From Actinokineospora diospyrosa (GTDB lineage Bacteria > Actinomycetota > Actinomycetes > Mycobacteriales > Pseudonocardiaceae), in contig NZ_JAMTCO010000003.1 in the NCBI RefSeq assembly GCF_024171925.1, positions 186,001 to 250,000 on the forward strand: a DNA stretch of 64,000 nucleotides, written 5' to 3'. Of the stretch, positions 2,657 to 46,962 are shown piece by piece. A model generated the notes under the pieces. That model saw nothing but the letters and a program-made list of their open reading frames with translations. It was not told where the DNA came from and made no database searches. Every line of letters begins with the position of its first letter. Position 1 is the stretch's first letter. A program made the translations under genes and the position numbers.

Positions 2657-2696
2657 TAGGGGTGTGTCAGGGGTTGCGGGATCAGTCGTCAGGGGT
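2657..2696 (+). promoter_or_regulatory. Cluster of TAGGGG/CAGGGG boxes with no obvious downstream gene
   Basis: TAGGGGTG at 2657 is followed by CAGGGGTTG at 2668, exactly 11 nt later, and CAGGGGTGG at 2690, 22 nt later. The words and their helical spacing match boxes found upstream of six other genes in this window. Unlike those, there is no -10-like hexamer 30 nt downstream and no plus-strand gene. The boxes may be operators for the minus-strand LAL regulator 1 (autoregulation). Confidence 0.35.
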
Positions 2697-5907: not shown

Positions 5908-5944
5908 GGCTGTTTCCCCCCACCCGGCTCCGGGATTTCCGACG

Positions 5945-5990
5945 ATCCCAGGGGCACCCCGAAGTCGACAACCCCCTATCCGGCCCCTAA
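5945..5990 (-). promoter_or_regulatory. Candidate LAL-box promoter of the carboxyltransferase/thioesterase unit
   Basis: On the minus strand TAGGGGCC (from 5989) and TAGGGGGTTG (from 5978) form a direct repeat with an 11-nt period. A -10-like TGGGAT lies at 5950-5945, 28 nt from the second box. The layout is shared with five other promoters in the window and leaves a leader of about 30 nt before the ATG at 5907. Confidence 0.5.
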
Positions 5991-6077
5991 GCGCACCGGC
6001 TCGTCCCGTGTTCCCCACTTCGACCAAACCGCCGGTCCTGACCTGCGGGTAGATCCAGTGGCGGGCCCCACTGTCCA

Positions 6078-6103
6078 CCCCTGGACACCCCTATCCGACC
6101 CTA
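6078..6103 (-). promoter_or_regulatory. Three helically spaced TAGGGT/TAGGGG/CAGGGG boxes
   Basis: On the minus strand the words start at 6103, 6093 and 6083, that is every 10 nt. They overlap the TATAAT-like -10 and the region upstream of it in the LAL regulator 2 promoter on the other strand. They could therefore mediate autoregulation of the regulator, or serve as a second, more distant input to the divergent carboxyltransferase unit. No clear -10 hexamer follows at 30 nt (TCTACC only). Confidence 0.35.
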
Positions 6104-6107
6104 TAAT
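6082..6107 (+). promoter_or_regulatory. Possible promoter of LAL regulator 2 (TATAAT)
   Basis: A perfect TATAAT stands at 6102-6107, rare in DNA this GC-rich. The best -35-like hexamer is TGGACA at 6082-6087, with a short 14-nt spacer, so the -35 assignment is weak. The leader to the ATG at 6253 would be about 140 nt. Confidence 0.35.
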
Positions 6108-6252
6108 GACGAAAGTCGGCGGGCCGCGTGGCGTTAACGGGAAAATATCTGTCCGGCAATGATCCGGCCCGCTTAGTCACTTCTCCGACAGCAGCCAGCG
6201 GGAGTAGATTCCCAGGTCGGACGCCGCTCGCCGGGTGTGGAGGGAAGACCGG

Positions 6253-8748
6253 ATGACACTGGTCGAACGCCAGTTGGTCCAACGGCGGCTTGTCGAACGC
6301 GACAGCGCGGTCGAGGCGTTGGTGGGGCACCTCGCCGAGTGCGCGCTGGGTGGGGCGCGGGTCGTCGCGGTCGTCGGCGGGCCAGCCAGCGGCAAATCGA
6401 GCCTGCTCGACCTCTTCGCCGATCGTCTAGTCGCCTCAGGGACGCTGCTGCTATCCGCGTCCGGCTCACGCGAAGAGCGGGAAATCCCACTCGGCGCGGT
6501 ACGGCAGTTGGAGTCAGGCCTGCCTGGCGACGGTGAGTTCACCGACCGGGTGTTGGCCGCAGCGCGCAAGCGGTCGTTGGTGCTCGCCATAGACGACGTC
6601 CAGCACGTGGACGCGGCGTCGCTGCGGCTGCTGGCGCAGGTGCGCGAGCGCGCGGCGGGGCTGCCGGTGCTGGTCGTGGTGACCGACTGGGAGCCGCTGT
6701 CCGGGGAGTTGACCACGCGCGCCGACCACCGGCTGCGGCTCGGCCTGCTCACCGAGTACGGGGTCGCGGAGTTCCTGCGCGCCCAGGTCGGCACCGACGG
6801 CGCCGCCGCGGCGTACCACCGGGCGACCGGCGGGAACCCGCTGCTGCTGCACGCCATGATCGCCGACAACAAGCACGACCCGGCGGCCGCCGAACCCGGG
6901 TTCGCCTTCCGCCAGGCCGTGGTCGCCTGCCTGCACCGCGGTGAGCCCCGGCTGCTCGCCGTCGCCAGGGCGTTGGCGGTGCTGGGGTCGTGGTCCTCGC
7001 CCGCGGCGATCGCGGAGCTGACCGAGCAGACCGAGGTGGTCGCCGCGCGGCTCACCGGGGTGCTCACCTCCGCTGGCGTGCTGGTCGGCTGGCGGTTGCG
7101 CCACGACGCGGTCCGCTCGGCGGTGCTCGACGGCCTGCCGCCCGCCGAGGCGGCGCGATTACACCTGCGCGCGGCCCGGGTCCTGCACCAGCGCCGCGCG
7201 CGACCGATCGAGGTGGCCCGACTGGTGGTCGCCGCTGGCCCCGAGCTGCCCGACTGGGTGGTCCCGGTGCTGCGGGCGGCCGCGCTGGACGCGATCGCGA
7301 CCGACCGGGGCGAGTTCGCGGTCCGCTGCCTGCGCCAGGCGTTGCCGATGACCACCGGGCGCGTCCGCGAGCAGACCGCGGCCGACCTCGCGGGTGCGGT
7401 GTGGCGGTACAACCCGGGTGACTTCGCCCCGTTGTCCGAAGTGGACCCCGCGGCCGCGCTCCGGTTCACGCTGTGGCACAACGACCCCGGCAAGGTCCAC
7501 GACGACGTCGGGTTGGCGCTGGCCAACGAGTGGATCCGCGGCACCGCGCCGTCGGTGCGGGTGGCGCACACGTGGGAGCGCGCCGCCGCCGCACTGGTCC
7601 CGGGGCTCATCGGGGGAGCGGTGACCGATGTCGTCGCCGACGCCGAGCGCGTGCTGCACGGGTGCCCGCTGGCGGACCGGACCCTGGAGGTCCTGGCCGC
7701 CGCGGTGACCGCGCTGCTGATGGCCGACCGGGTCGACCTGGCCGAGCGCTGGTGCGCCGACCTGATCGGGGAGGCCGAGCGGCGCCGGGCGACGACCTGG
7801 TTGGCGTTGCTCGGCTCGATCCGAGCCGAGGTCGAGCTGCGCCAAGGCGCGGTGCGCACGGCCTGGACGACGGCACAACGGAGTCTGGCCCTGTTGCCCG
7901 CCCGGTCGTGGGGTGTGCTGATCGGTCTACCGCTGTCGACGATGATCGCCGCGGACACGGCCATGGGCAACACCGAGAGCGCCGCCCTGCGCGAGGTCGT
8001 CCCCGATGGCATGGCCGACACGGTGATCGGCGCGCGGTACCTGCGGGCACGCGGACACCACTACCTCGCCTCGGACCGGGTGCTCGCGGCCATCGCGGAC
8101 TTCCAGGCGTGCGGCCGGGTCCTGGCCGCCGCGGGGATGGACCTGCCCGCACTGGCGCCGTGGCGGACCGACCTCGCCGAGGCGCACCTGCGGTTGGGGC
8201 GCGGCCGTGCGGCGGCGCACTTGGCCCGCGTGCAAGCCGAATTGCCCGCCTCGGCCGCGAGGCACACCCGAGCCAGGTCGATGCGCGTCCTGGCCTTGGC
8301 GGGGCACCACCCGGTCCGCCTGCTGCACGAGGTCGCCGAGTCGTTCCGGGCCACCGGTGATCGCTATGCCGCCGCTGTGGCGCTGGCTGAGCTGTCCGCC
8401 GCGATCGCGACTCGTGGTGATGCGGCTCGCGCGCGTCGGATAGCCAAGACGGCTGCGGATGAGGCTGCGGCTTGCGGGGTTCGTGGTCTTCTTGATCGTG
8501 TTCCTGCGCGTCGGCCGGACCGGGCTGATCAAGGCGCTTCGGCGCTGAGTGATGCTGAGCACCGGGTGGCGACGTTGGCGGCGCTGGGGCATACGAACCG
8601 GGAGATCGCGCACAAGTTGTACATCACGATCAGTACGGTGGAGCAGCACCTGACGAAGATTTATCGGAAGTTGGGTGTGCGTAAGCGGTCTGATCTGCCA
8701 GCGGGGTTGGCTGTCCACACGGGACGATCAGTTGAGTTGACTCGCTGA
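6253..8748 (+). CDS. LAL-type LuxR transcriptional regulator 2
   Basis: This 831-residue protein is a complete large ATP-binding LuxR regulator. The start at 6253 is chosen because GGAGGG (6239-6244) lies 8 nt before it; an in-frame ATG at 6235 lacks such a site. The N-terminal Walker A GGPASGKSS is at residues 42-50. A Walker B segment LVLAIDDVQHVD follows, then a long TPR-like helical region. The last ~65 residues hold the LuxR helix-turn-helix, with SDAEHRVATLAALGHTNREI and STVEQHLTKIYRKLGV. MalT-like family members bind direct repeats as ATP-loaded oligomers, and LAL proteins are common activators of macrolide clusters. Codon 303 (7159-7161) is a TTA leucine, so translation may depend on the bldA tRNA. 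It is transcribed divergently from the carboxyltransferase and converges on TEII-2. It probably acts on the TAGGGG boxes described here (inference). Confidence 0.93.
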   Translation: MTLVERQLVQRRLVERDSAVEALVGHLAECALGGARVVAVVGGPASGKSSLLDLFADRLVASGTLLLSASGSREEREIPLGAVRQLESGLPGDGEFTDRVLAAARKRSLVLAIDDVQHVDAASLRLLAQVRERAAGLPVLVVVTDWEPLSGELTTRADHRLRLGLLTEYGVAEFLRAQVGTDGAAAAYHRATGGNPLLLHAMIADNKHDPAAAEPGFAFRQAVVACLHRGEPRLLAVARALAVLGSWSSPAAIAELTEQTEVVAARLTGVLTSAGVLVGWRLRHDAVRSAVLDGLPPAEAARLHLRAARVLHQRRARPIEVARLVVAAGPELPDWVVPVLRAAALDAIATDRGEFAVRCLRQALPMTTGRVREQTAADLAGAVWRYNPGDFAPLSEVDPAAALRFTLWHNDPGKVHDDVGLALANEWIRGTAPSVRVAHTWERAAAALVPGLIGGAVTDVVADAERVLHGCPLADRTLEVLAAAVTALLMADRVDLAERWCADLIGEAERRRATTWLALLGSIRAEVELRQGAVRTAWTTAQRSLALLPARSWGVLIGLPLSTMIAADTAMGNTESAALREVVPDGMADTVIGARYLRARGHHYLASDRVLAAIADFQACGRVLAAAGMDLPALAPWRTDLAEAHLRLGRGRAAAHLARVQAELPASAARHTRARSMRVLALAGHHPVRLLHEVAESFRATGDRYAAAVALAELSAAIATRGDAARARRIAKTAADEAAACGVRGLLDRVPARRPDRADQGASALSDAEHRVATLAALGHTNREIAHKLYITISTVEQHLTKIYRKLGVRKRSDLPAGLAVHTGRSVELTR

Positions 8749-8856
8749 GCGCACCCGTGGCTGGGGTGCGTGTGGCTCGATGAGGCCTGGTTGTGTGTGG
8801 GGTTCCTGTGGCGTCTGCGTGGGCTGCGAAGCCGTGTGGCCGTGCTGGGGCTTGTG

Positions 8857-8971
8857 GTGCGGTGGGCTCGGTGTCCCGTGTGTCTGCGGTGGTTGCTAGT
8901 GCGGTCGGCTCCGTGGGGCGGGTGTCCCGTGTGTCTGCGGGGGTTGGGAGTGCGGTGGGCTCGATGGGGCG
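8857..8971 (+). repeat. Imperfect direct repeats after LAL regulator 2
   Basis: Units beginning GTGCGGTGGGCTCG or GTGCGGTCGGCTCC start at 8857, 8899 and 8950. The first two share a TGTCCCGTGTGTCTGCGG core. Unit lengths are about 42 and 51 bp, with a truncated third copy that runs into the large inverted repeat. The segment is G-rich on the plus strand and has no credible reading frame. Confidence 0.55.
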
Positions 8972-9097
8972 AACTTGTTTTGCGTGGGGCCCCTACAACA
9001 CACGTGGCAGGTCCGCACAGCAGGGGCCGAAAAGACTGGCCCTGCCGCGAGGCGACGCTACGGGTGTTGTCCCCCCACGCAAAACAAGTCCGCCCCA
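8965..9097. repeat. Large inverted repeat between convergent genes (terminator or REP/MITE-like element)
   Basis: A left arm at 8965-8989 and a right arm at 9073-9097 are 25 bp long and complementary with one mismatch; the core is ACTTGTTTTGCGTGGGG. Inside, ACAACAC (8995-9001) pairs with GTGTTGT (9064-9070), and GCAGGGGCC pairs with GGCCCTGC, so the 83-bp interior can fold further. It lies between LAL regulator 2 (ends 8748) and TEII-2 (ends 9200), which converge, so it is well placed as a bidirectional terminator. The arms are much longer than a usual intrinsic terminator and no T-run follows, so a dispersed REP- or MITE-like element is an alternative. Confidence 0.65.
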
Positions 9098-9199
9098 GCG
9101 AGCAGGAACAGGGGTGGGGTTGGTAGGGGGCGGCGGGGGGTGAGGGTGAGGAGGGAGTGAGGACGAAGGTGAGGGCGAGGGAAGTGGGGCGGGTGGGGG

Positions 9200-9913
9200 C
9201 TAGGGATGGGGGTCCGAGCGGGAAGTTGTGCACAGAGCGGTGATGCGCTCGGAGACGGTGTTGGCCACTGTGGACACGAAGGTGGTCAGGTAGCCGTGGT
9301 CGCCGGAGAAGAGTTGGAGTTCGAACCAGCCGGTGGTGACTTCGCTCCAGGCGTCGGCGTGGGGGGCGGCTGGGTCGGTGTCGCCGATCATGGCGAGGAT
9401 GTGGCAGGAGACCCGGTCTTGTGGGCGCCAGCGGTAGGACTCGGTGGCGCGTTGGTCGTCGTGCAGGGTGGTCAGCGGGGTGGGGGCTGGGAACCGCAGG
9501 GGTTCGGTGAACTCGCCGGTGTCGACGTACGACGCGGTGCCCAGGCGGGAGGGGCTGGGGGCGCCGGAGGCGAACAGGGCCATCGGGCGCCTGCCCGCCC
9601 GTTCGGCGCGGACCGCGGTCTCGAAGGCGACCGCCGCGCCCAGGCCGTGGCCGAGGAAGGCGATCGGCAGGTCGGCGCGGCAGTTCAGCTCCGAGCTGAC
9701 TCCGTCGGCGAGGCCGGGCACCGAGGTGATCGACGGCTCGTGGCGGCGGTCGCGGCGGCCGGGGTACTGCACCCCGAGCACCTCGACCGGCCGGGCGATG
9801 GATTGGGCCAGCTGCAGGAAGAACGTCGCCGAGGCGCCTTCCGGGGGGAAGCACACCAGTCGGCACCGCGGTCGCGGCGCGGAGCGCAGCCGGTACACCC
9901 ACGAGTCACCCAC
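9200..9913 (-). CDS. Type II thioesterase homologue lacking the nucleophile serine
   Basis: This 237-residue protein has type II thioesterase layout but an altered active site. GTG 9913 is chosen because GGAGG (9920-9924) lies 6 nt before it; the open frame continues upstream as far as 11551 but that part is antisense to the P450. The elbow reads GHGLG (88-92), with Gly90 where the catalytic Ser should be, confirmed by codon GGC. The oxyanion segment reads CFPPEGASA instead of the usual PHAGGSA pattern. Asp180 (GDTDP) and His206 (GDHGYL) are kept. The fold and full length are intact with no frameshift, so the gene is maintained and not obviously a pseudogene. It may act as a non-hydrolytic carrier-protein-binding partner, or use another residue. 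It has its own TAGGGG box promoter and is divergent from the P450. Confidence 0.85.
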   Translation of the reverse strand: MGDSWVYRLRSAPRPRCRLVCFPPEGASATFFLQLAQSIARPVEVLGVQYPGRRDRRHEPSITSVPGLADGVSSELNCRADLPIAFLGHGLGAAVAFETAVRAERAGRRPMALFASGAPSPSRLGTASYVDTGEFTEPLRFPAPTPLTTLHDDQRATESYRWRPQDRVSCHILAMIGDTDPAAPHADAWSEVTTGWFELQLFSGDHGYLTTFVSTVANTVSERITALCTTSRSDPHP

Positions 9914-10016
9914 GGGCACCCTCCGCGCGACCGAGCGTCGAGCTACCGAGCCCGCCCATGGCCTCCGGCTTCCTCTCCGCGCGCGGGCGTTGGGAACTTT
10001 CCGGCGCCTGACGGCC

Positions 10017-10052
10017 AAGGTGCCGGCAGCCGGTGACGCCGGGCAACCCCTA
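10017..10052 (-). promoter_or_regulatory. Candidate LAL-box promoter of TEII-2
   Basis: On the minus strand TAGGGGTTG begins at 10052 and CACCTT occupies 10022-10017, exactly 30 nt on. The hexamer resembles the TACCTT of the PccB promoter at 42315. Only one box is evident. The predicted leader to the GTG at 9913 is about 95 nt. Confidence 0.45.
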
Positions 10053-10116
10053 GCAGCGCCGCGGCGCGCTGTCCACGGTGTCCGAGAAGGGATGGACCGG
10101 AACGGCGCAAGGGCCC

Positions 10117-10153
10117 TAGGGGTTGAGCTTAGGGGGGACGCCCGGTCTAGCGT
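10117..10153 (+). promoter_or_regulatory. Candidate LAL-box promoter of the P450 gene
   Basis: TAGGGGTTG begins at 10117 and a second TAGGGG at 10130. TAGCGT at 10148-10153 is a -10 candidate 31 nt from the first box. The resulting leader would be very short (about 10 nt), just enough for the GGGAGGG ribosome site at 10159-10165. Confidence 0.45.
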
Positions 10154-10168
10154 GGCGCGGGAGGGAAC

Positions 10169-11410
10169 ATGACCGACCTCGCGGATCGACAGGCGCGGGC
10201 GCAGATGGCGTTGTGGCAGGACCACTTGCGCGCCGTCAGCGATCGCGGCGACCCGTACGCGCGGCTGCTGCGCGCGCCCGAGGACCCGTACCCGCTCTAC
10301 GAGCAGGTGCGCGCGCGGGGGCCGCTGCACCGCAGCGGGCTCGGCGTGTGGGTGACCGCGAGCCACCGGCTGGCCAACAAGGTGTTGCGGGACAAGCGCT
10401 TCGGCGTGCGCCGCGCCGACGGCACCAAGGCGCCGGAGTTCATGCCCTTCGACAACTCGATGCTCGGCCTCGACCCGCCGGAGCACACCCGGCTGCGCAA
10501 GCTGTCGGTGCCCTCGCTCAACCCGCGCAGGCTGGAGAAGTGGCGGCCGACCGCCGAGCGGGTGTGCGACGAGCTGATCGACCGGATCCTGGCCGGGCGC
10601 GCCGAGGTCAACTTCATGAGCGCCTTCGCCCAGCAGTTGCCGCTGCGGGTGATCGGCGACCTCGTCGGCATCCCCGAGCGGCACCGGCGGCTGTTCTTCC
10701 AGCTGAGCAGGCGGATGGCCTACCTGCTCGACGGGGTCGCCTCGGTGGAGGTCGCCAGGGACGTGCGGGCCGCGATCGCGGAGATGACGGTGATGTTCAC
10801 CGACATCATCGCGCTGCGCCGGGTCGAACCGGGCGAGGACCTGATCAGCGACCTGCTGCCCGCGGTCGACGACGGTCGGCTGGCGATGGACGAGCTGGTG
10901 CCGCTGTGCATGTTCCTGCCGTTGGCGGGCACCGAGACCACGGTCAACCTCATCGGCAACGCCGTGCGCGCGCTGCTGGGCAACCCCGAGCAGTGGGCCC
11001 GCTTCAAGGCCGACCCGGGGCTCGCGCCCGCCGTCGTGCAGGAGACGTTGCGCTACGACACGCCCGTGCAGCAGTACCGGCGGATCGCGCACACCGACGT
11101 CGAGCTCGACGGCCACGTCGTGCCCGAGGGCGCGGAACTGGCGATCTGCGCGGGCGCGGCGAACCGGGACCCGGAGGTCTATTCGCGGCCGGACAGTTTT
11201 GACATCGGCCGGGAATCCGGTCCGGACACGTTGTCCTTTTCCGCCGGAATCCATTTCTGCCTCGGCGCGGCACTGGCCCGGCTCGAGGCCGAGATCGCGC
11301 TGGTCGCGGTCGCCGCGCGGCTGCCGCTGCTGCGTCCGGTCGGACAGGTCCGACGCCGGGATTCCTTTATTATCAGGGGGATGCTGCAGTTCCCGGTAGC
11401 GGTCGAGTAG
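10169..11410 (+). CDS. Cytochrome P450 (polyketide tailoring hydroxylase, probable)
   Basis: This 413-residue soluble bacterial class I P450 is of normal length. It has the oxygen-activation I-helix motif AGTETT at residues 253-258, the K-helix ExxR as ETLR (292-295) and the haem-binding loop [10 protein letters not shown] with the thiolate ligand Cys364. The substrate-contact segment [11 protein letters not shown] around 102-112 is typical of actinomycete CYP107/CYP105-like enzymes. It needs electrons from a ferredoxin and reductase, neither of which is nearby. It lies directly upstream of PKS-1 in the same direction and its TAG stop is part of the first TAGGGG box of the PKS-1 promoter. It most likely hydroxylates or epoxidises the finished polyketide; the site cannot be deduced. 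The GGGAGGG ribosome site sits just before the ATG. Confidence 0.94.
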
Positions 11411-11454
11411 GGGCCAGCTAGGGGTTGTCCAGTGCGGACCGCCGTCTTTAGGGT
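11408..11454 (+). promoter_or_regulatory. Candidate LAL-box promoter of the PKS-1/2/3 operon
   Basis: TAGGGGCC (from 11408, overlapping the P450 stop codon) and TAGGGGTTG (from 11419) are 11 nt apart. TAGGGT at 11449-11454 lies 30 nt from the second box as a -10 candidate. The leader to the ATG at 11541 would be about 80 nt. Confidence 0.55.
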
Positions 11455-11540
11455 TGTCGCGCGGAGATGTGGAAATACACGTGGGGACTGGTTCCCGCGT
11501 GCCCGCAGCCGGTCGTGCGCCGCCCGAGAGGTCCTGGAAG

Positions 11541-26684
<15,144 letters not shown>

Positions 26685-26694
26685 GAGGACGGTC

Positions 26695-30918: not shown

Positions 30919-30920
30919 CG

Positions 30921-36900: not shown

Positions 36901-39900
36901 CCCACGTCGCCGGGATCCTCTCCCTCGACGACGCCTGCACCCTGGTCTCCGCTCGCGCTCGACTCATGCAGGCTTTGCCCACGGGTGGGGCCATGCTCGC
37001 GATCGAGGCCGCCGAGCACGAACTCGATCTCCCCGAGGGCGTCGACCTCGCCGCCGTGAACTCGGATCGTTCGATTGTCGTATCCGGGGACCGTAGGACT
37101 GTCGAACAGTTCAAACGTCAGAGTGTCGAACAAGGCCGTCGGGTCAAGGACCTGGTCGTCTCGCACGCGTTCCACAGCCACCTGATGGACCCGATGCTGG
37201 ACGAGTTCCGGCAGGTGGTGTTGGGGCTGTCGTTCAAGAATCCGACAATCCCCCTGGTGAACACCTCACCAGGTGATCCGGCGACGCCTGAGTACTGGGC
37301 GCGGCAGGTCCGGGAGCCGGTGCGGTTCGCGGCAGCGGTGGCGCGCGCCGAGGACGTCACCCGCTACCTGGAGTTGGGCCCGGACGGGGTGCTCAGCGCC
37401 GCTGTCGGTGGGGGCGCCTTCCCGGCGCTGCGGTCCGGGCGCGACGAGGTCGAAACAGTCCTGCGCGCCGTTGCCGAGGTCCACGTCCGGGGCGCCTTCG
37501 TCGACTGGCCCGCCCTGACCCGCGACTGGGGCGGCCGACGGGTCGACCTGCCCACGTATGCCTTCGCCCGCGAGCACTACTGGCCCACTCCAACCCCCTG
37601 GGCCGGAGATGTCGCCGCCGCAGGCCTAGGCGTGACCGACCACCCCCTCCTCGGCGCTGGGGTAGGCACCGCGGGAGCCAACGACCTGCTGTTCACCGCA
37701 CGCGTATCGACCCGCACCCACCCCTGGCTGGCCGACCACCGCGTCCACGGCCAAACCCTCCTCCCTGGAACCGCTTTCGTCGAACTGGCCCTACACGCCG
37801 GAGAAGCGCGCGGCCTGCCCGTCCTCGAGGAGTTGGTGCTGCACGCACCACTCGTCCTCCCCGCCCGCGCCGCCACCCAACTCCAGTTCGCTGTAACCGA
37901 AACCGGCGCTGTCACCATCCACAGCAGACCAGCCGACGACACCGGCTGGTCCAATCACCCCTGGACTCTCCACGCCACCGGCACCCTCACCGGCACTCTC
38001 GATGCCTCCGCTGAGAACGGGGCTAACCGAGAGTCCACAGAGGAACTCCCGTGGCCGCCGCCCGGGGACCCTCTGGACATCAAGGACATCTACGCCGACC
38101 TGGACGCAGCGGGTCTCTCCTACGGCCCCGCGTTCCAAGGTCTGCGCGCGGTCTGGCGCACAGACGACGCCATCTTCGCCGAGGTCACGCTCCAGGACAC
38201 CGCTGGATTCGGTCTGCACCCGGCACTTCTCGACTCCGCGCTGCACGCACTCGCGGTCGGCGCGAACGGGACGGGAGCGGCAGGCGTCCCGTTCGCCTGG
38301 TCCGGTGTCCGCTTGTCCGCCACCGGCGCCTCCACGCTCCGCGTCCGGCTCACCAGCGGCCCCGACGGCGTCACCCTCGTCGCGGTCGACCCCGCCGGAA
38401 CGCCGGTCATCACCGTCGACAAGGTCACCCTCCGCGCAGCCGCCACCACTGCGATCACCGCACCCCCACTGCACCGCCTCGCCTGGCGCAGTACCCCGCT
38501 GCTCGCCGACACCGAACCGGTAGGCACCTGGTCCGTCCTCGGCGACGACACCTTCGGCGCGGCGGCCGGTCTGGCCGAAGCGGGCGCCACGCTCGTCGAC
38601 ACCGATCCCGACCACGTGGTCCTCTGCTCCAGCGGTCCAGACCTGCTCGATCGCCTCACCGCCGTCCTGGGCGAGGCCAAGGTGACCGTCCTGACCAGGG
38701 GAGCTGTCGCCGCCGAACCCGGTGACGACGTCCCGGACCTGCCCGGCGCCGCCGTCTGGGGCCTCCTGCGGGTCGCGCAGGGCGAGGACCCCGGCCGGGT
38801 CCGCCTGGTCGACATCGACGGCGACCCGTGGGCGGCGCTGCTGCACAGCCCGGACGAACCCCAGCTCGCCATCCGGTCCGGGGTCGCCCTGGTACCCCGC
38901 GTCGTCCCCGACCCCGGCACCGACCTGCCCGCCCCCGACGGCCCCTGGCGGCTGGACACCACCGGTCGCGGCACGCTCGAGAACCTGGTCCTCGCCCCCG
39001 TCGCCCACCCCGACCTGGCCCCCGGTGAGGTCCGCGTCGCCGTCCGCGCGGCCGGGCTGAACTTCCGGGACGTCCTCAACGCGCTCGGCATGTACCCCGG
39101 CGAGGTCGCGATCGGCGGTGAGGCGGCGGGTGTCGTCACCGAGGTCGGATCAGCCGTGACCGGCCACAAGGTCGGCGACCGCGTCCTCGGCCTGTTCTCC
39201 GCGGCCTTCGCCCCCTCAGCTGTTACCGACCAGCGGCTCTTGGTTCCCCTGCCGGACGACTGGACCTTCGTCGAGGGCGCGTGCGTGCCGATCGTTTACG
39301 CCACCGCCTACTACGGCTTGGTTGACCTCGCGAACCTGCGAGAAGGCGAATCCGTTCTGGTCCACGCCGCAGCCGGTGGTGTCGGAATGGCCGCTGTGCA
39401 GCTCGCCAGGCACCTCAAAGCCGAGGTCTACGGCACCGCCAGCCCGGCGAAATGGTCAGCCACGGGCCTTCCCGAAGACCGTCTTTCGTCCTCGCGCGAT
39501 CTCGACTTCGCCACCACGTTCCCCCAGGTCGACGTGGTCCTCAACGCTTTGGCGGGCGAGTTCGTCGACGCCTCCCTCGGGCTGTTGCGGCCGGGTGGGC
39601 GATTCCTGGAGATGGGCAAGACCGACATCCGCGCTGAAGTGTCCGGTGTGGACTACCGGGCCTATGACCTGGCCGAGGCGGGACCGGATCGGATCGGGGA
39701 GATCCTCGGCCAGGTCATGGCCCTGTTCGCGGGCGGCGCGCTCACCCTGCCGCCGCGGCGCGTGTGGGACGTCCGCCAGGCCCGCGCCGCGTTCCGGTAC
39801 ATGAGCCAGGCCAGGCACGTCGGCAAGGTCGTGCTGACCGTCCCCGCCGCGCCCGACCCCGCCGACCCGGTCCTGATCACCGGCGGCACCGGGGCGCTCG

Positions 39901-41090: not shown

Positions 41091-42254
41091 CGAGGCCTCA
41101 CGGAACGGTGTCGCCAACAACGCGGCTCCTGCGATAGCCATACCTGTGGAGCCGACGACCAACGCCGTCGGTAGTGACAACTGGTCGCCGATGATGCCGC
41201 CGACGGGAGCACCGATGGTGATCATCCCCCAGTTGAACGAGCGGATCGTGGCGTTGCAGCGCCCTTGCAGGCGGTCTGGGGTGATCTGCTGGCGATAGGT
41301 GAGGTCATGCGGGCCTTCGACTCCGAGCCCAAGGCCCAAGAGGAACTGCCCCGCGAAGACAGCCCAGTCGCCTGCTAGAGCCAAGACAAAGCCGGATGCC
41401 GCGAGGAGCCTGCCAAGCACGACCGTGCGTGCTAGTCCGATCCTCTTGTGGACAAGCAGTGAGATCCCACCGCCTGCCACGGTGCCAACACCTGCAGCCG
41501 CATAGGCGAATCCGAGACCGGCAGGACCGATCGCGTCCACCGCGTATGGCACGAAGGCCGTGCTCGCCATCGCCGTGAAAAGGAACCTGGCATGCGAGCT
41601 GAGCGACAACGGGGCGAGCATGCGGTGTCGGTAGACCCACCGCAGACCTTCACGCATCTCAGTCAGGAGATGCCTCTCGACAGGTTCTGGCTTGGTCTCT
41701 TTCACCCGGAGAGTCGCCACCAAGATGCCAGACACGACATACGACACAGCGTCGACTAGGACGGCCAACGGCGCCCCGAGCAGCTTCAAGAGCCCACTGC
41801 CCAGCAAGGGCCCGCCGGTCTGCGCAACGGAGTTGGTCTGCTCCAGCCGCACGTTCGCCCACGCAAGCCTGTCAGGTTCAACAATGCGCGGTAGGAATGA
41901 CTGGAAGGCGGCATCACCTAGCAGTGACAGCACACCCACGCCGAACACGACCGCGATCAAGACAGGCAGGGACAACAGGTCCGTGGCTGCTAAGAGGGGA
42001 ATCAACCCTAGAAGGGCTGCCCGGCCCAGGTCGGTGCCGATCATCATCGGGCGCCGCCTACACCGGTCGACGATCACGCCCGCGATGAGCCCGAACAGCA
42101 GATAGGGCATCCACCGGGCGGCATTGAGGAGCCCGACCTCGGTCGCCGACGCCGAGAGCGTCACCACAGCGATCACTTGGACGGCCACCGTCGTGACATA
42201 CGTCCCGAACATTGAGATGGCGTCAGCCAGCCAGAACCTGCCAAATGCCCCCAT
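41079..42254 (-). CDS. MFS efflux transporter
   Basis: This 391-residue major facilitator protein has about 11-12 hydrophobic segments. A motif-A-like loop GVIVDRCRRRP follows helix 2 (about residues 60-70). The start MGAFGRFWLADAISMFGTYV resembles the drug/siderophore exporter branch (DHA3, EntS-like). ATG 42254 is the only sensible start because an in-frame TAA lies four codons upstream; the ribosome site is weak. It probably exports the polyketide or gives self-resistance. The gene ends inside the 3' end of PKS-3 (12-bp convergent overlap) and is divergent from the PccB gene, with only 96 bp between them. Its codon use is somewhat less GC-biased than the PKS genes. Confidence 0.9.
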   Translation of the reverse strand: MGAFGRFWLADAISMFGTYVTTVAVQVIAVVTLSASATEVGLLNAARWMPYLLFGLIAGVIVDRCRRRPMMIGTDLGRAALLGLIPLLAATDLLSLPVLIAVVFGVGVLSLLGDAAFQSFLPRIVEPDRLAWANVRLEQTNSVAQTGGPLLGSGLLKLLGAPLAVLVDAVSYVVSGILVATLRVKETKPEPVERHLLTEMREGLRWVYRHRMLAPLSLSSHARFLFTAMASTAFVPYAVDAIGPAGLGFAYAAAGVGTVAGGGISLLVHKRIGLARTVVLGRLLAASGFVLALAGDWAVFAGQFLLGLGLGVEGPHDLTYRQQITPDRLQGRCNATIRSFNWGMITIGAPVGGIIGDQLSLPTALVVGSTGMAIAGAALLATPFREASLAV

Positions 42255-42274
42255 ACCCGCAGCTTAGCGTCGTG

Positions 42275-42320
42275 CAGGGGGCGTTAGGGGTACTGCCCCG
42301 GCCGGTCGCGGCCCTACCTT
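42275..42320 (+). promoter_or_regulatory. Candidate LAL-box promoter of the PccB gene
   Basis: CAGGGG (from 42275) and TAGGGGTAC (from 42285) are 10 nt apart, and TACCTT at 42315-42320 lies 30 nt from the second. On the other strand a related TAGGGC (from 42316) precedes TAACGC by 30 nt, facing the MFS gene. The 96-bp divergent region could thus serve both genes, though the MFS side is weaker. Confidence 0.5.
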
Positions 42321-42350
42321 GGGCGCCTGAGCCGTGAGGAGGACCGAGCC

Positions 42351-43916
42351 ATGTCGACCACCGCGGATCGGATTTCCGACCTTGCCGCTCGCCACGTCCA
42401 GGCCGTCGAGATCGCGGAGAAGCGCGCGGTCGACCGCCAGCACGCCAAAGGCAAGCTCACCGCACGCGAGCGCATCGAGCTGCTCTTAGACCCCGGCTCG
42501 TTCGTGGAACTGGACGAGTTCGCCCGCCATAGATGCACCGACTTCGGCATGGAGCACAACCGTCCCTACGGCGACGGTGTTGTCACCGGGCACGGCACGG
42601 TAGACGGTCGTCAGGTATGTGTGTTCTCGCAAGACTTCACCACCCTCGGCGGCAGCATGGGGGAGGCGTTCGGCAACAAGGTACTTAAGGTGATGGACCT
42701 TGCCTTGAGCATCGGCTGCCCGGTCATTGGCATCAACGACTCCGGCGGCGCGCGGATCCAGGAAGGCGTTGTCTCCCTGGCTCACTACGCCGAACTCGGC
42801 ATGCGGAACGTGCGGGCCTCGGGCGTTGTCCCGCAGATCTCGCTGTTGATGGGCCCGTGCGCTGGCGGGGCTGTGTACTCGCCCGCGATCACCGACTTCA
42901 CGGTCATGGTGGACAAGACCTCTTACATGTTCGTCACCGGACCTGAGGTCGTCTCCGCGGTCACCGGTGAGAGCACCACCCTTGATGAGCTCGGTGGTCC
43001 TGCCGTCAACAGCTCGGTGTCCGGCAACGCCCACTACGTCGGCCAAGACGAGCAAGACGCGATCGCATGGGTGCAGGCGTTGCTGGGTTACCTACCCAGC
43101 AACAACCTTGACCCGCTACCGGTATACGACCACGCACATGAGCCTGCCGTGACCGAACAGGACCAACGGCTCGACAGCCTGATCCCGGACGCGGAGAACC
43201 AGGGTTACGACGTCACCGAGGTCATTCGAGCCATCGTCGACGATGGCGACTACCTCGAGGTGCAGCCTGACTACGCCCGCAACATCGTGTGTGTGCTCGC
43301 TCGCGTAGACGGCCACTCGGTCGCCGTTGTCGCTAACAACCCACTCGTGAACGCTGGCGCCATCGACATCGCTAGCTCCGAGAAGGCTGCCAGGTTCGTC
43401 CGCTTCTGCGACGCCTTCAGCATCCCCATCGTCACCTTGGCTGACGTCCCCGGCTACCTGCCCGGCGTGGCGCAGGAACGCGGTGGGATCGTGCGCCACG
43501 GTGCCAAGCTCATCTATGCCTACGCCGAGGCCACCGTCCCGAAGGTCACCGTCGTGCTCCGCAAGGCTTACGGCGGTGGATACGCGGTCATGGGGTCCAA
43601 ACACCTCGGCGCTGACGTCAACCTGGCCTGGCCGACCGCCGAGATCGCCGTCATGGGCGCGACAGGCGCCGTCCAGATCCTGCACCGCAGGACTCTTCAA
43701 GCCACCGACCCCACCGAACGCGCAGCAGTCGCCGCCGGGCTGGTCGACGAGTACCGCCGCGCGTTCAGCAACCCTTACGCTGCCGCCGAGCGCGGCTATG
43801 TGGACCGGGTCATCCAGCCCGCTCGTACTCGCCTGGAGATCTCCACCGCACTACGCGTCTTGCGCACCAAACGCGCCACCGCACCGACCCGCAAGCACGG
43901 GAACATCCCCCTCTAG
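42351..43916 (+). CDS. pccB: Propionyl-CoA carboxylase beta subunit (methylmalonyl-CoA supply)
   Basis: This 521-residue carboxyltransferase fits the actinomycete PccB family in length and motifs: HAKGKLTARERI (31-42), INDSGGARIQEG (128-139), ADVPGYLPG (364-372), RKAYGGGYAVMGSKHLGAD (404-422) and C-terminal KHGNIPL. Asp422 is the residue known in Streptomyces coelicolor PccB to favour propionyl-CoA over acetyl-CoA. It should carboxylate propionyl-CoA to methylmalonyl-CoA with a biotinylated alpha subunit encoded elsewhere. Methylmalonyl-CoA is needed by the PKS-A loading AT and the third AT of PKS-1. GAGGAGG (42336-42342) lies 8 nt before the ATG. Codon 46 (42486-42488) is a TTA. Its own TAGGGG-box promoter suggests co-regulation with the PKS genes. 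Confidence 0.93.
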   Translation: MSTTADRISDLAARHVQAVEIAEKRAVDRQHAKGKLTARERIELLLDPGSFVELDEFARHRCTDFGMEHNRPYGDGVVTGHGTVDGRQVCVFSQDFTTLGGSMGEAFGNKVLKVMDLALSIGCPVIGINDSGGARIQEGVVSLAHYAELGMRNVRASGVVPQISLLMGPCAGGAVYSPAITDFTVMVDKTSYMFVTGPEVVSAVTGESTTLDELGGPAVNSSVSGNAHYVGQDEQDAIAWVQALLGYLPSNNLDPLPVYDHAHEPAVTEQDQRLDSLIPDAENQGYDVTEVIRAIVDDGDYLEVQPDYARNIVCVLARVDGHSVAVVANNPLVNAGAIDIASSEKAARFVRFCDAFSIPIVTLADVPGYLPGVAQERGGIVRHGAKLIYAYAEATVPKVTVVLRKAYGGGYAVMGSKHLGADVNLAWPTAEIAVMGATGAVQILHRRTLQATDPTERAAVAAGLVDEYRRAFSNPYAAAERGYVDRVIQPARTRLEISTALRVLRTKRATAPTRKHGNIPL

Positions 43917-44017
43917 CGGGTAGTGCGGACATGGGACTGTCGCGGGCTGGGACTGGTCGTTATCGTCAACGACGTCTACCTCCCGCTCCCGCGCGCCCAC
44001 GAAGTGTGATCCAGGGT

Positions 44018-44029
44018 TCACCCCGGTGA
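44018..44029. promoter_or_regulatory. Short palindrome TCACC-CC-GGTGA before the ABC exporter genes
   Basis: This is the only symmetrical element seen in the 230-bp gap between PccB and the ABC ATPase gene. No TAGGGG box or convincing promoter is visible in this gap; TACGAT at 44043-44048 is a possible -10 without a matched -35. Confidence 0.25.
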
Positions 44030-44146
44030 CGGCGAGCGACGGTACGATCACCGCCGCCACGGGTCCGAACCGGGCAAATCCGGCGGGCCCCCGCCCCTGC
44101 GGCACAGCGCCAGGGCGGCTGACGAGCGTGAAGGGGAACCACGAGC

Positions 44147-44935
44147 GTGAACGCGGTGCAGCCTAGGGTCGAGGACGGGACGGCGGCGTTGCGTCTGCTC
44201 GGCCTGCACAAGGTGTTCGGCGAGTACACGGCGGTCGACCACGCCGACCTCACCGTCGCCCCCGGTTCGTTCTACGGACTCGTCGGTCCTAACGGCGCGG
44301 GCAAGACGACGGCCCTCTCCATGGCCGTCGGCTTGCTCCGCCCGGACGAAGGTCGGTCCGAGGTGTTCGGCGTGGATGTCTGGGCCGACCCGTTGGCCGC
44401 CCGCAAGCTCATGGGCGTTCTCCCCGATGGCCTTGCCTTGCCCGAGCGCCTTACCGGTCGGGAATTGCTCACCTACCTAGGTCAGCTAAGAGGCTTGGAC
44501 GCCAAGACAGTCGCTGACCGCGCTACCGAACTGCTCGACGTGATGGAGCTTTCGGGCGACGCCGAGCGCACGCTCGTGGTCGACTACTCCACCGGTATGC
44601 GTAAGAAGATCGGTCTCGCTACCGCCCTGCTGCACGGACCCCGGCTGCTGGTCCTCGACGAGCCGTTCGAGGCTGTCGACCCGGTGTCGGCGGCCACGAT
44701 CAAACGCATCCTCAACCGGTTCGTCGCGGGCGGCGGCTCCGTGCTGCTCTCGAGCCACGTCATGGCCCTGGTCGAGCAGCTGTGCGACACGGTCGCGGTG
44801 ATGGCCAAGGGCCGGGTGGTCGCCGAGGGCCCGCTCGACCAGGTCCGCGGCGCGGCCTCGCTGGAAGACACCTTCGTCGAGCTGGTCGGCGTCAAGGTCG
44901 GCGGCGGGGAGGGGCTGTCGTGGCTGGCGTCCTGA
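44147..44935 (+). CDS. ABC transporter ATP-binding protein
   Basis: This 262-residue nucleotide-binding subunit has Walker A GPNGAGKTT (47-55), a signature-like DYSTGMRKKIGLA (146-158), Walker B LLVLDEPFEAVDP (167-179) and the switch histidine in LLSSHVM. The sequence fits DrrA- or NatA-like exporters whose membrane domain is a separate protein. The start is GTG 44147, with AGGGG about 10 nt before it. The gene overlaps the membrane-protein gene that follows by 16 bp, so the two are coupled and form one exporter. Placed between the two PKS blocks, it probably exports or gives resistance to the polyketide; the substrate is inferred from context only. Confidence 0.92.
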   Translation: MNAVQPRVEDGTAALRLLGLHKVFGEYTAVDHADLTVAPGSFYGLVGPNGAGKTTALSMAVGLLRPDEGRSEVFGVDVWADPLAARKLMGVLPDGLALPERLTGRELLTYLGQLRGLDAKTVADRATELLDVMELSGDAERTLVVDYSTGMRKKIGLATALLHGPRLLVLDEPFEAVDPVSAATIKRILNRFVAGGGSVLLSSHVMALVEQLCDTVAVMAKGRVVAEGPLDQVRGAASLEDTFVELVGVKVGGGEGLSWLAS

Positions 44936-46803
44936 TCCGGATGAAGCTCGCCGTCCTGCGGCACACCATCGCCGGTCCGAAGGCGACCTGGATGCTCACC
45001 GGCGGGCTCGTCGGCCTGGCCATCGCCGCCGGGACGATCGCGCTGGCCACCGCGGACGCCGCTCCCGGCACCGTCGCCGACCTGCTCGCGGTCACCTTCG
45101 CCATCTGGGCCTTCGGCTGGATGCTCGGCCCCGCCTTCGGTGGCGACCCGGTCTTACGAGCCGAGCAGTTCGCCCTGGAGCCCGTCCCACGCACCCGGCT
45201 GGCTCTTGGCCTGCTCGGCGCCGCGTTCGTCGGTGTCACTACCGCGGTCACCCTCGTCGCCTTCACCGCGCTCGTCGTCTACGCCGCCCGACTAGGCATC
45301 CTGTCGGTCGTCGTGTCCATCCCGGCCTTGGTGCTCCAGCTGACCTTGGTCGTGCTGCTGTCGCGGCTCGCTGCGCGCTTCTTCGGCGCACTCGCCCGCT
45401 CCCGCGCAGGCGCTGCCGTCACCGCCGTGATCACCGCGACGATGATGGTGCTTAGCCAGTCCGGCTGGGTCGTGTTCATCGCACTGGACGTCGTGCTTGA
45501 GACCGGGTTCTCGCGCACCACGTCGCTCGTGATCCGCGCGCTGCCATCCAGCTGGGGTGTCATCGCCGTTGAGGCTGCCGCTCGCAAGGACTGGCTGTGG
45601 GTCGTAGGGCCGCTGGTGGCGTTGGCTGGGCTGGTGGTCCTGCTCGTCCTCTTGTGGGGGCGCGTACTGGGGCCGCAGCGGCTGGCTCGTCCGGTGGTAC
45701 GTGGATCTTCGGCTGCCCGTGCCGCCAAATGGACCGATCGTGGGCCGACGGCAGCGGTGTACGTCAAAGAGGTCCGCACCTGGTTGCGTGACCCGCTTCG
45801 CGTGCAGAGCCTGGTAGTCGCGCCTGCGTTCGCGTTGCTGAGCGGCCTGCTGCCACTGATGTTCGACTCGACGGCGCTCCTGCCGTTCGTCGGTGCCATT
45901 ACCGCACTGATGGCAGCCACGGTCAGCTCCAACCTCTATGGCCAAGACGGCACGGCACTGTGGTTGACGCTGATGACGCCTGGCACTGAGCTAGCTGACG
46001 TACGCGGTCGCCAGCTCGCCTGGCTGACCTGGTTCGGTCCGCTGTCGATCGTCCTAACTGTCGTCGGCACCGCCATCCACGGCAGCCTCTGGCCATGGGC
46101 GATCGCCTCCACCACCGCCATCCTCGGTGGCGGCGCGGGCCTGCTGTTGCTGACAGCGGTCGACCAACTCGTGCCCGGCCCCGACCCCCACCGCAACAAG
46201 AACTCCCCCCTTGACCACGGCGACACCACCGGTCCGGCCTTCGTGGCGCTCCTCCTCGTGCTCACGGCCGCTACCCCGGCGTTGTGTGTCGTGCTCGCCG
46301 GAGACCTGTTGGACATGCCGCTGTTGATGTGGGCAGGCGGCCCCGCCGGTGTGCTGACAGGACTGGTCGCCTACTGGATTCTGGGCGGTCTTGCGGCCAA
46401 GAGGCTCGCCGAGCGCGGCCCGGAGTTGCTCTATCTGATGCGCGCGGGCAAGGAACACGAGGCAGCGCTAAGCGCGGAGACCTCCGTCATCAAAGCGATG
46501 CCCCGACACCGCCGAGGTCTCCTCTGGACCAGCTTCTTCATCGGCTGCCTAGCGACATTCCCGCAAGGCCTAGTACCCCTCGGCATGAAACTAAGCGGCG
46601 AAATCGAGCGAGTCTGGTTCCTCGCCCTCTACCTACCCGAGGGCCTCCAGTGGCCAGTGATCGCGCTCATGCTCCTGATCGGCCTCTCCGCGTTCGCCCT
46701 GGCCTCCTGGGTCTACCTCACCGAGTCCCGCAAGCTCAAGGCCAAGCTCGAGCGCAAGGCCGCCGAACGCCGCCCCCAAGAGCAACCGCTCGCGGTCGGC
46801 TGA
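44920..46803 (+). CDS. ABC transporter membrane protein (exporter permease)
   Basis: This 627-residue polytopic membrane protein has about 12-14 hydrophobic segments and no nucleotide-binding motif. GTG 44920 is chosen (MAGVLIRMKLAVLRHTIAG) because GGGGAGGGG at 44906-44914 directly precedes it; the frame stays open further upstream, but that stretch is only a shadow of the ATPase gene. It overlaps the ATPase gene by 16 bp, so the two should be made in equal amounts. The size, larger than a usual six-helix ABC-2 permease, suggests two fused six-helix halves. One TTA codon lies at 45154-45156. A strong terminator at 46858-46892 ends the unit. Confidence 0.88.
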   Translation: MAGVLIRMKLAVLRHTIAGPKATWMLTGGLVGLAIAAGTIALATADAAPGTVADLLAVTFAIWAFGWMLGPAFGGDPVLRAEQFALEPVPRTRLALGLLGAAFVGVTTAVTLVAFTALVVYAARLGILSVVVSIPALVLQLTLVVLLSRLAARFFGALARSRAGAAVTAVITATMMVLSQSGWVVFIALDVVLETGFSRTTSLVIRALPSSWGVIAVEAAARKDWLWVVGPLVALAGLVVLLVLLWGRVLGPQRLARPVVRGSSAARAAKWTDRGPTAAVYVKEVRTWLRDPLRVQSLVVAPAFALLSGLLPLMFDSTALLPFVGAITALMAATVSSNLYGQDGTALWLTLMTPGTELADVRGRQLAWLTWFGPLSIVLTVVGTAIHGSLWPWAIASTTAILGGGAGLLLLTAVDQLVPGPDPHRNKNSPLDHGDTTGPAFVALLLVLTAATPALCVVLAGDLLDMPLLMWAGGPAGVLTGLVAYWILGGLAAKRLAERGPELLYLMRAGKEHEAALSAETSVIKAMPRHRRGLLWTSFFIGCLATFPQGLVPLGMKLSGEIERVWFLALYLPEGLQWPVIALMLLIGLSAFALASWVYLTESRKLKAKLERKAAERRPQEQPLAVG

Positions 46804-46857
46804 CCCCGCACCCCCGCCGCCCGCGGCGGTTGGTGATCTGAAACTCGTTGTGCTGTG

Positions 46858-46892
46858 ACGGCCCCCGTGTTGTTGGCGGGGGCCGTTGTTTT
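46858..46892 (+). terminator. Intrinsic terminator after the ABC exporter genes
   Basis: ACGGCCCCCG (46858-46867) pairs perfectly with CGGGGGCCGT (46877-46886) around a 9-nt loop, followed by TGTTTT. The ten-base GC stem with a T-rich tail is a textbook intrinsic terminator. It separates the ABC unit from the PKS-A promoter. Confidence 0.85.
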
Positions 46893-46905
46893 GCGCGCCC
46901 GAGGT

Positions 46906-46962
46906 TAGGGGCACGGGGTGGGGGCTTAGGGGTTGGCCGTGCCGGAGGCGGCTAACTAGGGT
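46906..46962 (+). promoter_or_regulatory. Candidate LAL-box promoter of PKS-A
   Basis: TAGGGGCAC (from 46906) and TAGGGGTTG (from 46927) are 21 nt apart, two helical turns. TAGGGT at 46957-46962 lies 30 nt from the second box. It sits directly behind the terminator and leaves a leader of about 60 nt before the ATG at 47031. Confidence 0.55.

What the first reader, a model, noticed from the sequence alone, without database searches (positions are those of the whole stretch)
5945..46962. A shared TAGGGG-box promoter architecture ahead of six genes: candidate LAL regulon
Six starts carry a TAGGGG box followed by a -10-like hexamer at a near-constant distance: carboxyltransferase (boxes 5989 and 5978, TGGGAT, 28 nt), TEII-2 (10052, CACCTT, 30 nt), P450 (10117 and 10130, TAGCGT, 31 nt from the first box), PKS-1 (11408 and 11419, TAGGGT, 30 nt), PccB (42275 and 42285, TACCTT, 30 nt) and PKS-A (46906 and 46927, TAGGGT, 30 nt). 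Where a second upstream box exists it is 10-11 or 21 nt away, that is on the same helix face. The box would cover the -35 region, the usual place for an activator that replaces a -35 element. MalT, the prototype of LAL proteins, binds G-rich direct repeats, and two LAL regulators are encoded here. The constant 30-nt spacing across both strands is hard to explain by chance.
Basis: partly seen in the sequence, partly recalled or inferred. Interest (0 to 1): 0.75.

Follow-up and report, generated by a model that had tools for sequence, protein, structure and literature searches.

The report
Docking sites of polyketide cluster regulators
A short DNA sign, TAGGGG, sits at a near-fixed distance before the start signals of several genes in a very large polyketide cluster, and the same layout recurs beside the same type of regulator gene in other actinobacteria, so it is probably that regulator's docking site and could help to predict which genes it switches on.

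Summary
The hexamer alone is barely enriched (15 in the window; 7 of 100 shuffles reach that), but TAGGGG followed by TANNNT at 29-31 nt occurs 4 times against a mean of 0.05 in 200 shuffles. The window is part of a ~180-kb type I PKS cluster in Actinokineospora. Three further promoters of this build, and a fourth lacking the -10, lie outside the window; the window's promoters recur in up to five congeners. In 74 LAL loci from other genera the distance from TAGGGG to TANNNT peaks at 29-31 nt (59 cases). None occurs among 128 TAGGGG in 1.34 Mb of controls, including PKS loci without such a LAL nearby and loci of other LAL-sized LuxR-type genes in the same genome. Of 53 non-redundant sites, 24 have a second GGGG core one helix turn upstream. 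I read the box as the operator of LAL regulators with the STVEQHLT helix, at about -42 to -37. Binding was not tested, and 41 of 79 LAL loci have no strict site. From memory, a similar operator is published for NemR, so this is a generalisation rather than wholly new.

The parts
1..2276 (-). LAL-1 gene (5' part; the whole gene is 940 aa, C3:185454-188276). HTH helix ITVSTVEQHLTRVYRKL.
   Evidence: a congener's orthologue (95% identical) has AAA_16 and GerE Pfam matches
2657..2676 (+). Distal two-box site TAGGGGTGTGTCAGGGGTTG upstream of LAL-1, pointing away from it; no -10 at 30 nt
   Evidence: TAGGGG kept in 6 of 9 genomes compared, own included (absent in G152, G179, G136); the second box keeps its GGGG but varies beside it
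2382..2390 (-). Conserved GTTAGATTC, likely LAL-1 core promoter (-10 TAGATT); no box seen at -40
   Evidence: alignment of 9 genomes; coordinates; role inferred
5984..5989 (-). Upstream box of the carboxyltransferase promoter
5973..5978 (-). Proximal box (TAGGGGGTTG) of the carboxyltransferase promoter
   Evidence: found in 5 of 6 genomes, own included (not in G167); in G220 and G236 no carboxyltransferase gene was called and the next gene is TEII-1
5942..5947 (-). Likely -10 of the carboxyltransferase promoter, GATCGT
   Evidence: GATCGT in 4 and GATGGT (29 nt from the box) in 1 of the 5 promoters
4477..5907 (-). Carboxyltransferase (476 aa)
6078..6093 (-). Distal two-box site TAGGGGTGTCCAGGGG between the divergent carboxyltransferase and LAL-2 genes; no -10 at 30 nt
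   Evidence: both boxes in 6 of 6 genomes, own included
6201..6210 (+). Conserved GGAGTAGATT, likely LAL-2 core promoter; no box seen at -40
   Evidence: role inferred
6253..8748 (+). LAL-2 gene (831 aa): AAA + GerE; HTH helix ITISTVEQHLTKIYRKL
10047..10052 (-). Box of the TEII-2 promoter
   Evidence: 6 of 6 genomes, own included
10017..10022 (-). -10 of the TEII-2 promoter, CACCTT (CACNTT in 6 of 6 genomes, always 30 nt)
10117..10122 (+). Box 1 of the P450 promoter (31 nt to the -10)
   Evidence: 6 of 6 genomes
10130..10135 (+). Box 2 of the P450 promoter, between box 1 and the -10, conserved
   Evidence: 6 of 6 genomes
10148..10153 (+). -10 of the P450 promoter, TAGCGT
   Evidence: 6 of 6 genomes
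11408..11413 (+). Upstream box of the PKS-1 promoter; its TAG is the stop codon of the P450 gene
   Evidence: TAAGGG in G078
11419..11424 (+). Proximal box of the PKS-1 promoter (TAGGGGTTGTCC)
   Evidence: 6 of 6 genomes
11449..11454 (+). -10 of the PKS-1 promoter, TAGGGT (TAGGGT, TATGGT or TATCGT across the 6 genomes, always 30 nt)
42275..42280 (+). Upstream box of the PccB promoter, CAGGGG
42285..42290 (+). Proximal box of the PccB promoter
   Evidence: 4 of 4 genomes where it was found; the stretches of G167 and G078 gave none and do not show a PccB gene
42315..42320 (+). -10 of the PccB promoter, TACCTT
   Evidence: 4 of 4 (29 nt in G236)
46906..46911 (+). Upstream box of the PKS-A promoter (21 nt up)
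   Evidence: conservation not tested
46927..46932 (+). Proximal box of the PKS-A promoter
   Evidence: conservation not tested
46957..46962 (+). -10 of the PKS-A promoter, TAGGGT
   Evidence: conservation not tested

Best explanation
The TAGGGG boxes are operator half-sites of LAL regulators (large ATP-binding LuxR/MalT-type activators) that share the recognition helix STVEQHLT; here LAL-1 and/or LAL-2. One box, often with further copies in the same orientation one or two helix turns upstream, lies 29-31 nt before a TANNNT-like -10, that is at about -42 to -37 if the -10 starts at -12. The most likely mechanism is a class II activator: ATP-bound, self-assembled LAL occupies the in-phase boxes, contacts sigma/RNA polymerase at a weak promoter, and turns on the carboxyltransferase, TEII, P450, PKS, glycosyltransferase and deoxysugar operons together. 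Shown: positions, conservation, spacing statistics and LAL-linked occurrence. Inferred: protein binding, activation, start sites, and which LAL acts. No box was seen at -40 of the LAL genes themselves, but conserved reverse-oriented two-box sites lie further upstream, which suggests feedback.
For: Conservation, own genome counted: P450 6/6, PKS-1 6/6, TEII-2 6/6, carboxyltransferase 5/6, PccB 4 of 4 found. In 74 LAL loci outside the genus, 403 TAGGGG with TANNNT at 29/30/31 nt in 18/32/9 cases; seven control hexamers have 0-4 at any of these distances. Controls: 0 at 29-31 nt among 128 TAGGGG in 1.34 Mb, namely random family DNA 0/29, own random 0/24, cluster flanks 0/11, 14 stretches around other LAL-sized LuxR-type genes 0/52, PKS loci with no such LAL nearby 0/12. 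Of 53 non-redundant sites none is well inside a called ORF and 40 are within 150 nt of a same-strand start codon. A GGGG core lies 9-11 nt upstream in 24 of 53 and 19-21 nt in 14, against 1 of 53 at 14-16 and 1 at 24-26. 16 of 30 target proteins scanned have domains typical of natural-product clusters. Only LAL-1 and LAL-2 show STVEQHLT among the 30 best of 45 HTH matches in the genome.
Against: No binding, start-site or expression data. Only 38 of 79 LAL loci have a strict site. Congeners G152 and G179 keep both LALs with STVEQHLT, yet gave no flagged site in the 60 and 40 kb read; G136 gave one. G167 lacks the carboxyltransferase box. Of 17 near-matches to TAGGGGTTG in the cluster, 12 have no TANNNT at 29-31 nt. 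Among PKS gene starts within 150 kb of such a LAL only 3 of 14 have a site in the 700 nt upstream (0 of 16 elsewhere). The P450 at C3:364494 has two boxes but no recognisable -10. At 29-31 nt upstream, where a third turn would fall, only 2 of 53 have a core. The LAL loci were found by their HTH, so other LAL types are compared only within this one genome.
Confidence: 0.8

Rival explanations
1. The box is the -35 element of an alternative (ECF-type) sigma factor, and LALs merely co-occur.
For: Near-constant box to -10 distance; in this cluster GGGGTTG reaches into the -35 region.
Against: In-phase upstream GGGG copies are not expected of a sigma site; the -10 is ordinary TANNNT; no sigma-factor family among the cluster genes scanned (not every gene was scanned; the only sigma-like match was a sub-threshold one to the HTH of the LAL-1 orthologue); sites follow LAL genes and not PKS clusters.
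Confidence: 0.05
2. Another cluster-associated or pleiotropic regulator binds the box, and LALs are passengers.
For: Clusters with LALs can carry other regulators too (geldanamycin, PMC6784220, passages); 41 of 79 LAL loci have no strict site; G152 and G179 keep the LALs without flagged sites.
Against: No second regulator family among the cluster genes scanned (not all genes); the pattern follows STVEQHLT-type LALs through many genera and is missing from PKS loci without one nearby.
Confidence: 0.1
3. Only one of the two LALs uses these sites, the other serving a different or no target.
For: LAL-1 is more conserved (95-83% against 90-61% in the five cluster-bearing congeners) and is kept at about 70% in three others; in nine 40-kb loci from other genera each showed one related LAL, so one can suffice.
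Against: Recognition helices are nearly identical, and both genes have conserved two-box sites upstream.
Confidence: 0.4
4. Chance: G-rich DNA and reading for patterns.
For: The hexamer alone is not significantly enriched in the window.
Against: Shuffles, controls, out-of-window sites and conservation.
Confidence: 0.01

Closest known systems
NemR operator, nemadectin cluster, Streptomyces cyaneogriseus (Li et al. 2019; operator recalled from the abstract, paper not held)
   Same: A LAL activator of a type I PKS cluster; the recalled essential sequence TGGGGTGKATAGGGGGTA holds two G-runs 10 bp apart, the second in TAGGGG
   Different: One cluster in one species; recalled, not verified; the recalled 18-mer had 0 exact matches in 392 Streptomyces genomes. 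The 30-nt promoter geometry and the cross-genus distribution come from this work.
MalT box (E. coli, Klebsiella), GGGGA(T/G)GAGG (as cited in PMC7567727, passages seen)
   Same: MalT/LAL family; G-rich box near -35
   Different: Different sequence beyond the G-run; here TAGGGGT with in-phase repeats and the box just upstream of -35
Actinoplanes MalT regulon, TCATCC-5-GGATGA (PMC7567727, passages seen)
   Same: MalT-like regulator in an actinobacterium controlling a large region; site overlaps -35 at constant distance from the start site
   Different: Palindromic and of different sequence; not a PKS cluster
MilO, mildiomycin (PMC11784345, passages seen)
   Same: LuxR-family cluster activator binding direct repeats (three 11-bp repeats with 2-nt spacers)
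   Different: Repeat TGTCNNNCGGT, 142 bp upstream of the start site
PAS-LuxR site CTVGGGAWWTCCCBAG (PMC9942304, passage seen)
   Same: LuxR-type HTH; half-site CTVGGG resembles CTAGGGG
   Different: Palindrome; PAS-LuxR, not LAL
SARP-LAL (PimR) heptamer repeats (PMC5930380, passages seen)
   Same: Direct repeats one helix turn apart near the promoter
   Different: CGGCAAG heptamers bound by a SARP domain, which was not seen in LAL-2 or the LAL-1 orthologue

Membership tests
LAL (large ATP-binding LuxR) regulators | N-terminal ATPase domain | tested here: met
   AAA_22 above its cut-off and AAA_16 just below it in LAL-2; AAA_16 above it in the LAL-1 orthologue; LAL-1 itself was not scanned
LAL (large ATP-binding LuxR) regulators | C-terminal LuxR/GerE helix-turn-helix | tested here: met
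   PF00196 in LAL-2 and the LAL-1 orthologue
LAL (large ATP-binding LuxR) regulators | Large size (about 800-1000 aa, recalled) | tested here: met
   831 and 940 aa
LAL-controlled (class II type) promoter | Box overlapping or abutting -35 at fixed distance from the -10 | tested here: met
   29-31 nt peak; 7 of 10 own promoters with TANNNT at 30-31 nt. Start sites are predicted, not mapped.
LAL-controlled (class II type) promoter | Repeats in helical phase | tested here: met
   24 of 53 sites at 9-11 nt, 14 at 19-21 nt, 2 at 29-31 nt; exception: the P450 pair at 13 nt
LAL-controlled (class II type) promoter | Bound by the LAL protein | not testable with these tools
   only co-occurrence
MalT-box promoters | GGGGA(T/G)GAGG core | tested here: not met
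   consensus is TAGGGGT followed by T or G
PAS-LuxR (PimM) sites | Palindrome CTVGGGAWWTCCCBAG | tested here: not met
   no such palindrome in the listed sites, read by eye
NemR-type operator | TGGGGTGKATAGGGGGTA essential for binding (recalled) | tested here: inconclusive
   similar two-G-run layout; exact sequence not found in 392 Streptomyces genomes

The most novel reading that the evidence does not exclude
TAGGGGT, repeated in helical phase and ending 29-31 nt before a -10, is a general operator code for STVEQHLT-type LAL activators across actinobacterial families, so that regulons of many silent clusters can be read from DNA alone; the LAL genes use reverse, distal copies of the same code for feedback.
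Probability: 0.6. Interest if true: 0.72.

Novelty: new variant of a known kind. Interest (0 to 1): 0.62.

Why it matters
LAL regulators sit in type I polyketide clusters, and overexpressing them has raised yields and woken silent clusters (review PMC7105598, passages). In the listings and passages I saw, no operator code for them was given beyond single cases. A searchable box-plus-spacing rule would predict which operons a LAL governs, help to mark cluster borders, and tell which box to test or move in promoter work.

Tried and rejected
The bare hexamer as evidence: rejected, since 7 of 100 shuffles reach the window count.

TATAAT at about 6102 as LAL-2's -10: rejected, present in only one of six aligned genomes; the conserved TAGATT is preferred.

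TTG as a universal -35: strong in this cluster (9 of 10) but present in only 12 of 53 sites elsewhere, so not claimed generally.

A sequence-only profile model: not built, because the alignment broke the spacing. Testing PKS gene starts by nearness to a LAL was underpowered (3 of 14 against 0 of 16; 30 loci of a longer list of matches) and was followed. Structure prediction was not run. Six ORFs scanned were wrong frames or not gene-like and gave nothing. Control hexamer GGTAGG had 4 and 4 cases at 31 and 32 nt; all 8 are GGTAGGGG, that is overlapping boxes.

Literature: the searches listed no paper naming TAGGGG as a LAL operator, and neither did the passages I saw in twelve papers; only open-licence papers are held and I read none in full.
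Full report
WHAT IS THERE. The window is C3:186001-250000 of an 8.11-Mb genome. Near relatives are named Actinokineospora: equal contig lengths tie G220, G152 and G179 to A. terrae, A. iranica and A. bangkokensis. The window holds about the first third of a type I PKS cluster that runs from LAL-1 (C3:185454) to a P450 near C3:364494, about 180 kb with ten large genes read as PKS (by a simple codon-usage gene caller of mine). All boxes and hexamers of the finding are present, with the corrections given under the observation check.

IS IT MORE THAN CHANCE. The hexamer is not: 15 against 9.6 expected, 7 of 100 shuffles reach 15; 1077 in the genome. The geometry is. Four TAGGGG in the window have TANNNT at 29-31 nt, against a mean of 0.05 and a maximum of 1 in 200 dinucleotide shuffles. 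In C3:186001-370000, 17 sites within one mismatch of TAGGGGTTG (GGGG kept) have TANNNT at 30 nt in 4 cases, 31 in 1, 40 in 1 and at no other distance from 12 to 49; so 12 of 17 have none at 29-31. None of 24 such sites in 280 kb of own control DNA has any. Four promoters outside the window share the build: those of PKS C3:294896, glycosyltransferase 349340, NDP-hexose 2,3-dehydratase 351346 (proximal box AAGGGG) and, without a clear -10, P450 364494. They are an independent check on a list drawn up from the window alone.

CONSERVATION. LAL-2 orthologues at 90, 80, 79, 73 and 62% identity by the genome search (G244, G220, G236, G167, G078; blastp over longer alignments gives 90, 80, 78, 68 and 61%) lie in matching loci. 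Box and -10 are kept while much of the sequence between drifts. Own genome counted: P450 6 of 6 (31 nt), PKS-1 6 of 6 (30 nt), TEII-2 6 of 6 (CACNTT, 30 nt), carboxyltransferase 5 of 6 (not in G167), PccB 4 of 4 found. In G220 and G236 the gene caller gave no carboxyltransferase, and that promoter stands before TEII-1. Against: G152 and G179 keep both LALs but gave no flagged site in the stretches read, and G136 one.

ACROSS GENERA. A 12-LAL alignment found 79 LAL loci in named genomes. Leaving out five Actinokineospora loci, 74 loci (1567 kb) hold 403 TAGGGG; TANNNT follows at 29, 30 and 31 nt in 18, 32 and 9 cases, against a mean of 1.35 per distance away from the peaks. A second, smaller peak at 39-41 nt (26) fits boxes one turn further up. 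Seven other hexamers have 0-4 cases at any of 28-32 nt; of these CAGGGG has 3 and 4 at 29 and 30, and GGTAGG 4 and 4 at 31 and 32, the latter all GGTAGGGG. Shuffled LAL loci give 0-1 in five rounds. Hosts with sites include Streptomyces, Micromonospora, Nonomuraea, Amycolatopsis, Saccharothrix and Lentzea. Strict sites occur in 38 of all 79 loci, so 41 have none.

CONTROLS. At 29-31 nt there are 0 cases among 29 TAGGGG in 400 kb of random family DNA, 24 in 180 kb of own random DNA and 11 in 100 kb of cluster flanks; 52 in 273 kb, 14 stretches around other LuxR-type HTH genes of this genome with open frames of 615-1230 aa, whose ATPase domain I did not check; and 12 in 388 kb, 20 stretches at PKS gene starts with no matching LAL within 150 kb on the contig and no STVEQHLT in the stretch, some contigs being short. 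So the sign follows this LAL type, not PKS genes and not LAL-sized LuxR proteins at large. A smaller test by PKS gene starts points the same way but is weak (3 of 14 near such a LAL, 0 of 16 elsewhere).

ANATOMY. Of the 53 non-redundant cross-genus sites none lies well inside a called gene (30-60 nt at gene ends were tolerated) and 40 are within 150 nt of a same-strand start codon. The consensus is TAGGGGT (T in 41 of 53), then mostly T or G. A GGGG core lies 9-11 nt upstream in 24 of 53, 19-21 nt in 14 and 39-41 nt in 4, but 29-31 nt in only 2, with 1 of 53 at each of 14-16, 24-26 and 34-36. If the -10 begins at -12, the box covers -42 to -37. In this cluster TTG follows the box in 9 of 10 promoters and could be a -35; elsewhere in 12 of 53. 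Of 30 target proteins scanned (of 40), 16 have domains typical of natural-product clusters: PKS, NRPS, thioesterase, P450, glycosyltransferase, sugar aminotransferase, FdtA, VinK-type acyltransferase, halogenase. The rest are general oxidoreductases, dehydrogenases and others, a transporter, a phosphoesterase, a PQQ-type protein, and one without a match.

WHO BINDS. LAL-2, and LAL-1 through its orthologue, have ATPase and GerE domains, and their recognition helices are nearly identical. The HTH search gave 45 matches in the genome, of which I read the 30 best; no other has STVEQHLT. Which of the two acts is open; in nine 40-kb loci from other genera one related LAL was seen. Both genes here have a conserved TAGATT likely to be their own -10, with no box at -40, and each has a conserved reverse-oriented two-box site further up (2657-2676 and 6078-6093), which would suit feedback. 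No other regulator family was recognised among the cluster genes scanned, but not every gene was scanned.

COMPARED WITH WHAT IS KNOWN. MalT-family activators bind G-rich boxes near -35 (PMC7567727, passages); MilO binds direct repeats (PMC11784345, passages). From memory, NemR needs TGGGGTGKATAGGGGGTA, two G-runs 10 bp apart; I could not read that paper, and an exact search in 392 Streptomyces genomes found nothing. If the recollection is right, the box is not wholly new; the promoter geometry, the repeat phase and the breadth are what this work adds.

Noticed in passing
C3:185454-364583 (window 1-64000 and beyond): The cluster is about 180 kb with ten large genes read as type I PKS and with deoxysugar and glycosyltransferase genes; its product is unknown to me.
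   Followed up: partly
window 11408-11410; C3:349274-349276; C3:351264-351266: In three tight junctions the TAG of a TAGGGG box is also the stop codon of the gene before it.
   Followed up: no
window 8976-8995 (-); C3:150838, 156659, 184716, 359517: A dispersed repeat TAGGGGCCCC(A/G)C(A/G)CAAAACA, five copies in 284 kb, accounts for some TAGGGG that are not promoter boxes.
   Followed up: partly
window 9978-10010 (-): Downstream of the TEII-2 -10 a stretch CAGGCGCCGGAAAGT(T/C)CCCAACGCCCGCGCGCG is almost unchanged in five of six genomes, more than its place in a leader would explain.
   Followed up: no
upstream of LAL-1, window 2407-2425 and about 2630-2650: Conserved stretches (CAATTGGCAAACCTTCCAC; a TTAAGG...TCTTGA block) are shared with congeners that lack the box, the second not with G152; perhaps sites of another regulator.
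   Followed up: no
window 10130-10135: The second box of the P450 promoter sits between the first box and the -10, 13 nt from the first, in all six genomes compared; it does not fit the 10-bp rule. Nonomuraea and Bailinhaonella loci L143, L153 and L157 show a similar TAGGGGTTGATCTAGGGG layout (12 nt, -10 at 31 nt), in L143 also before a P450.
   Followed up: partly
G220 and G236 loci (L079, L080): No carboxyltransferase gene was called beside LAL-2 in these two congeners, although its box promoter is kept and stands before TEII-1.
   Followed up: no
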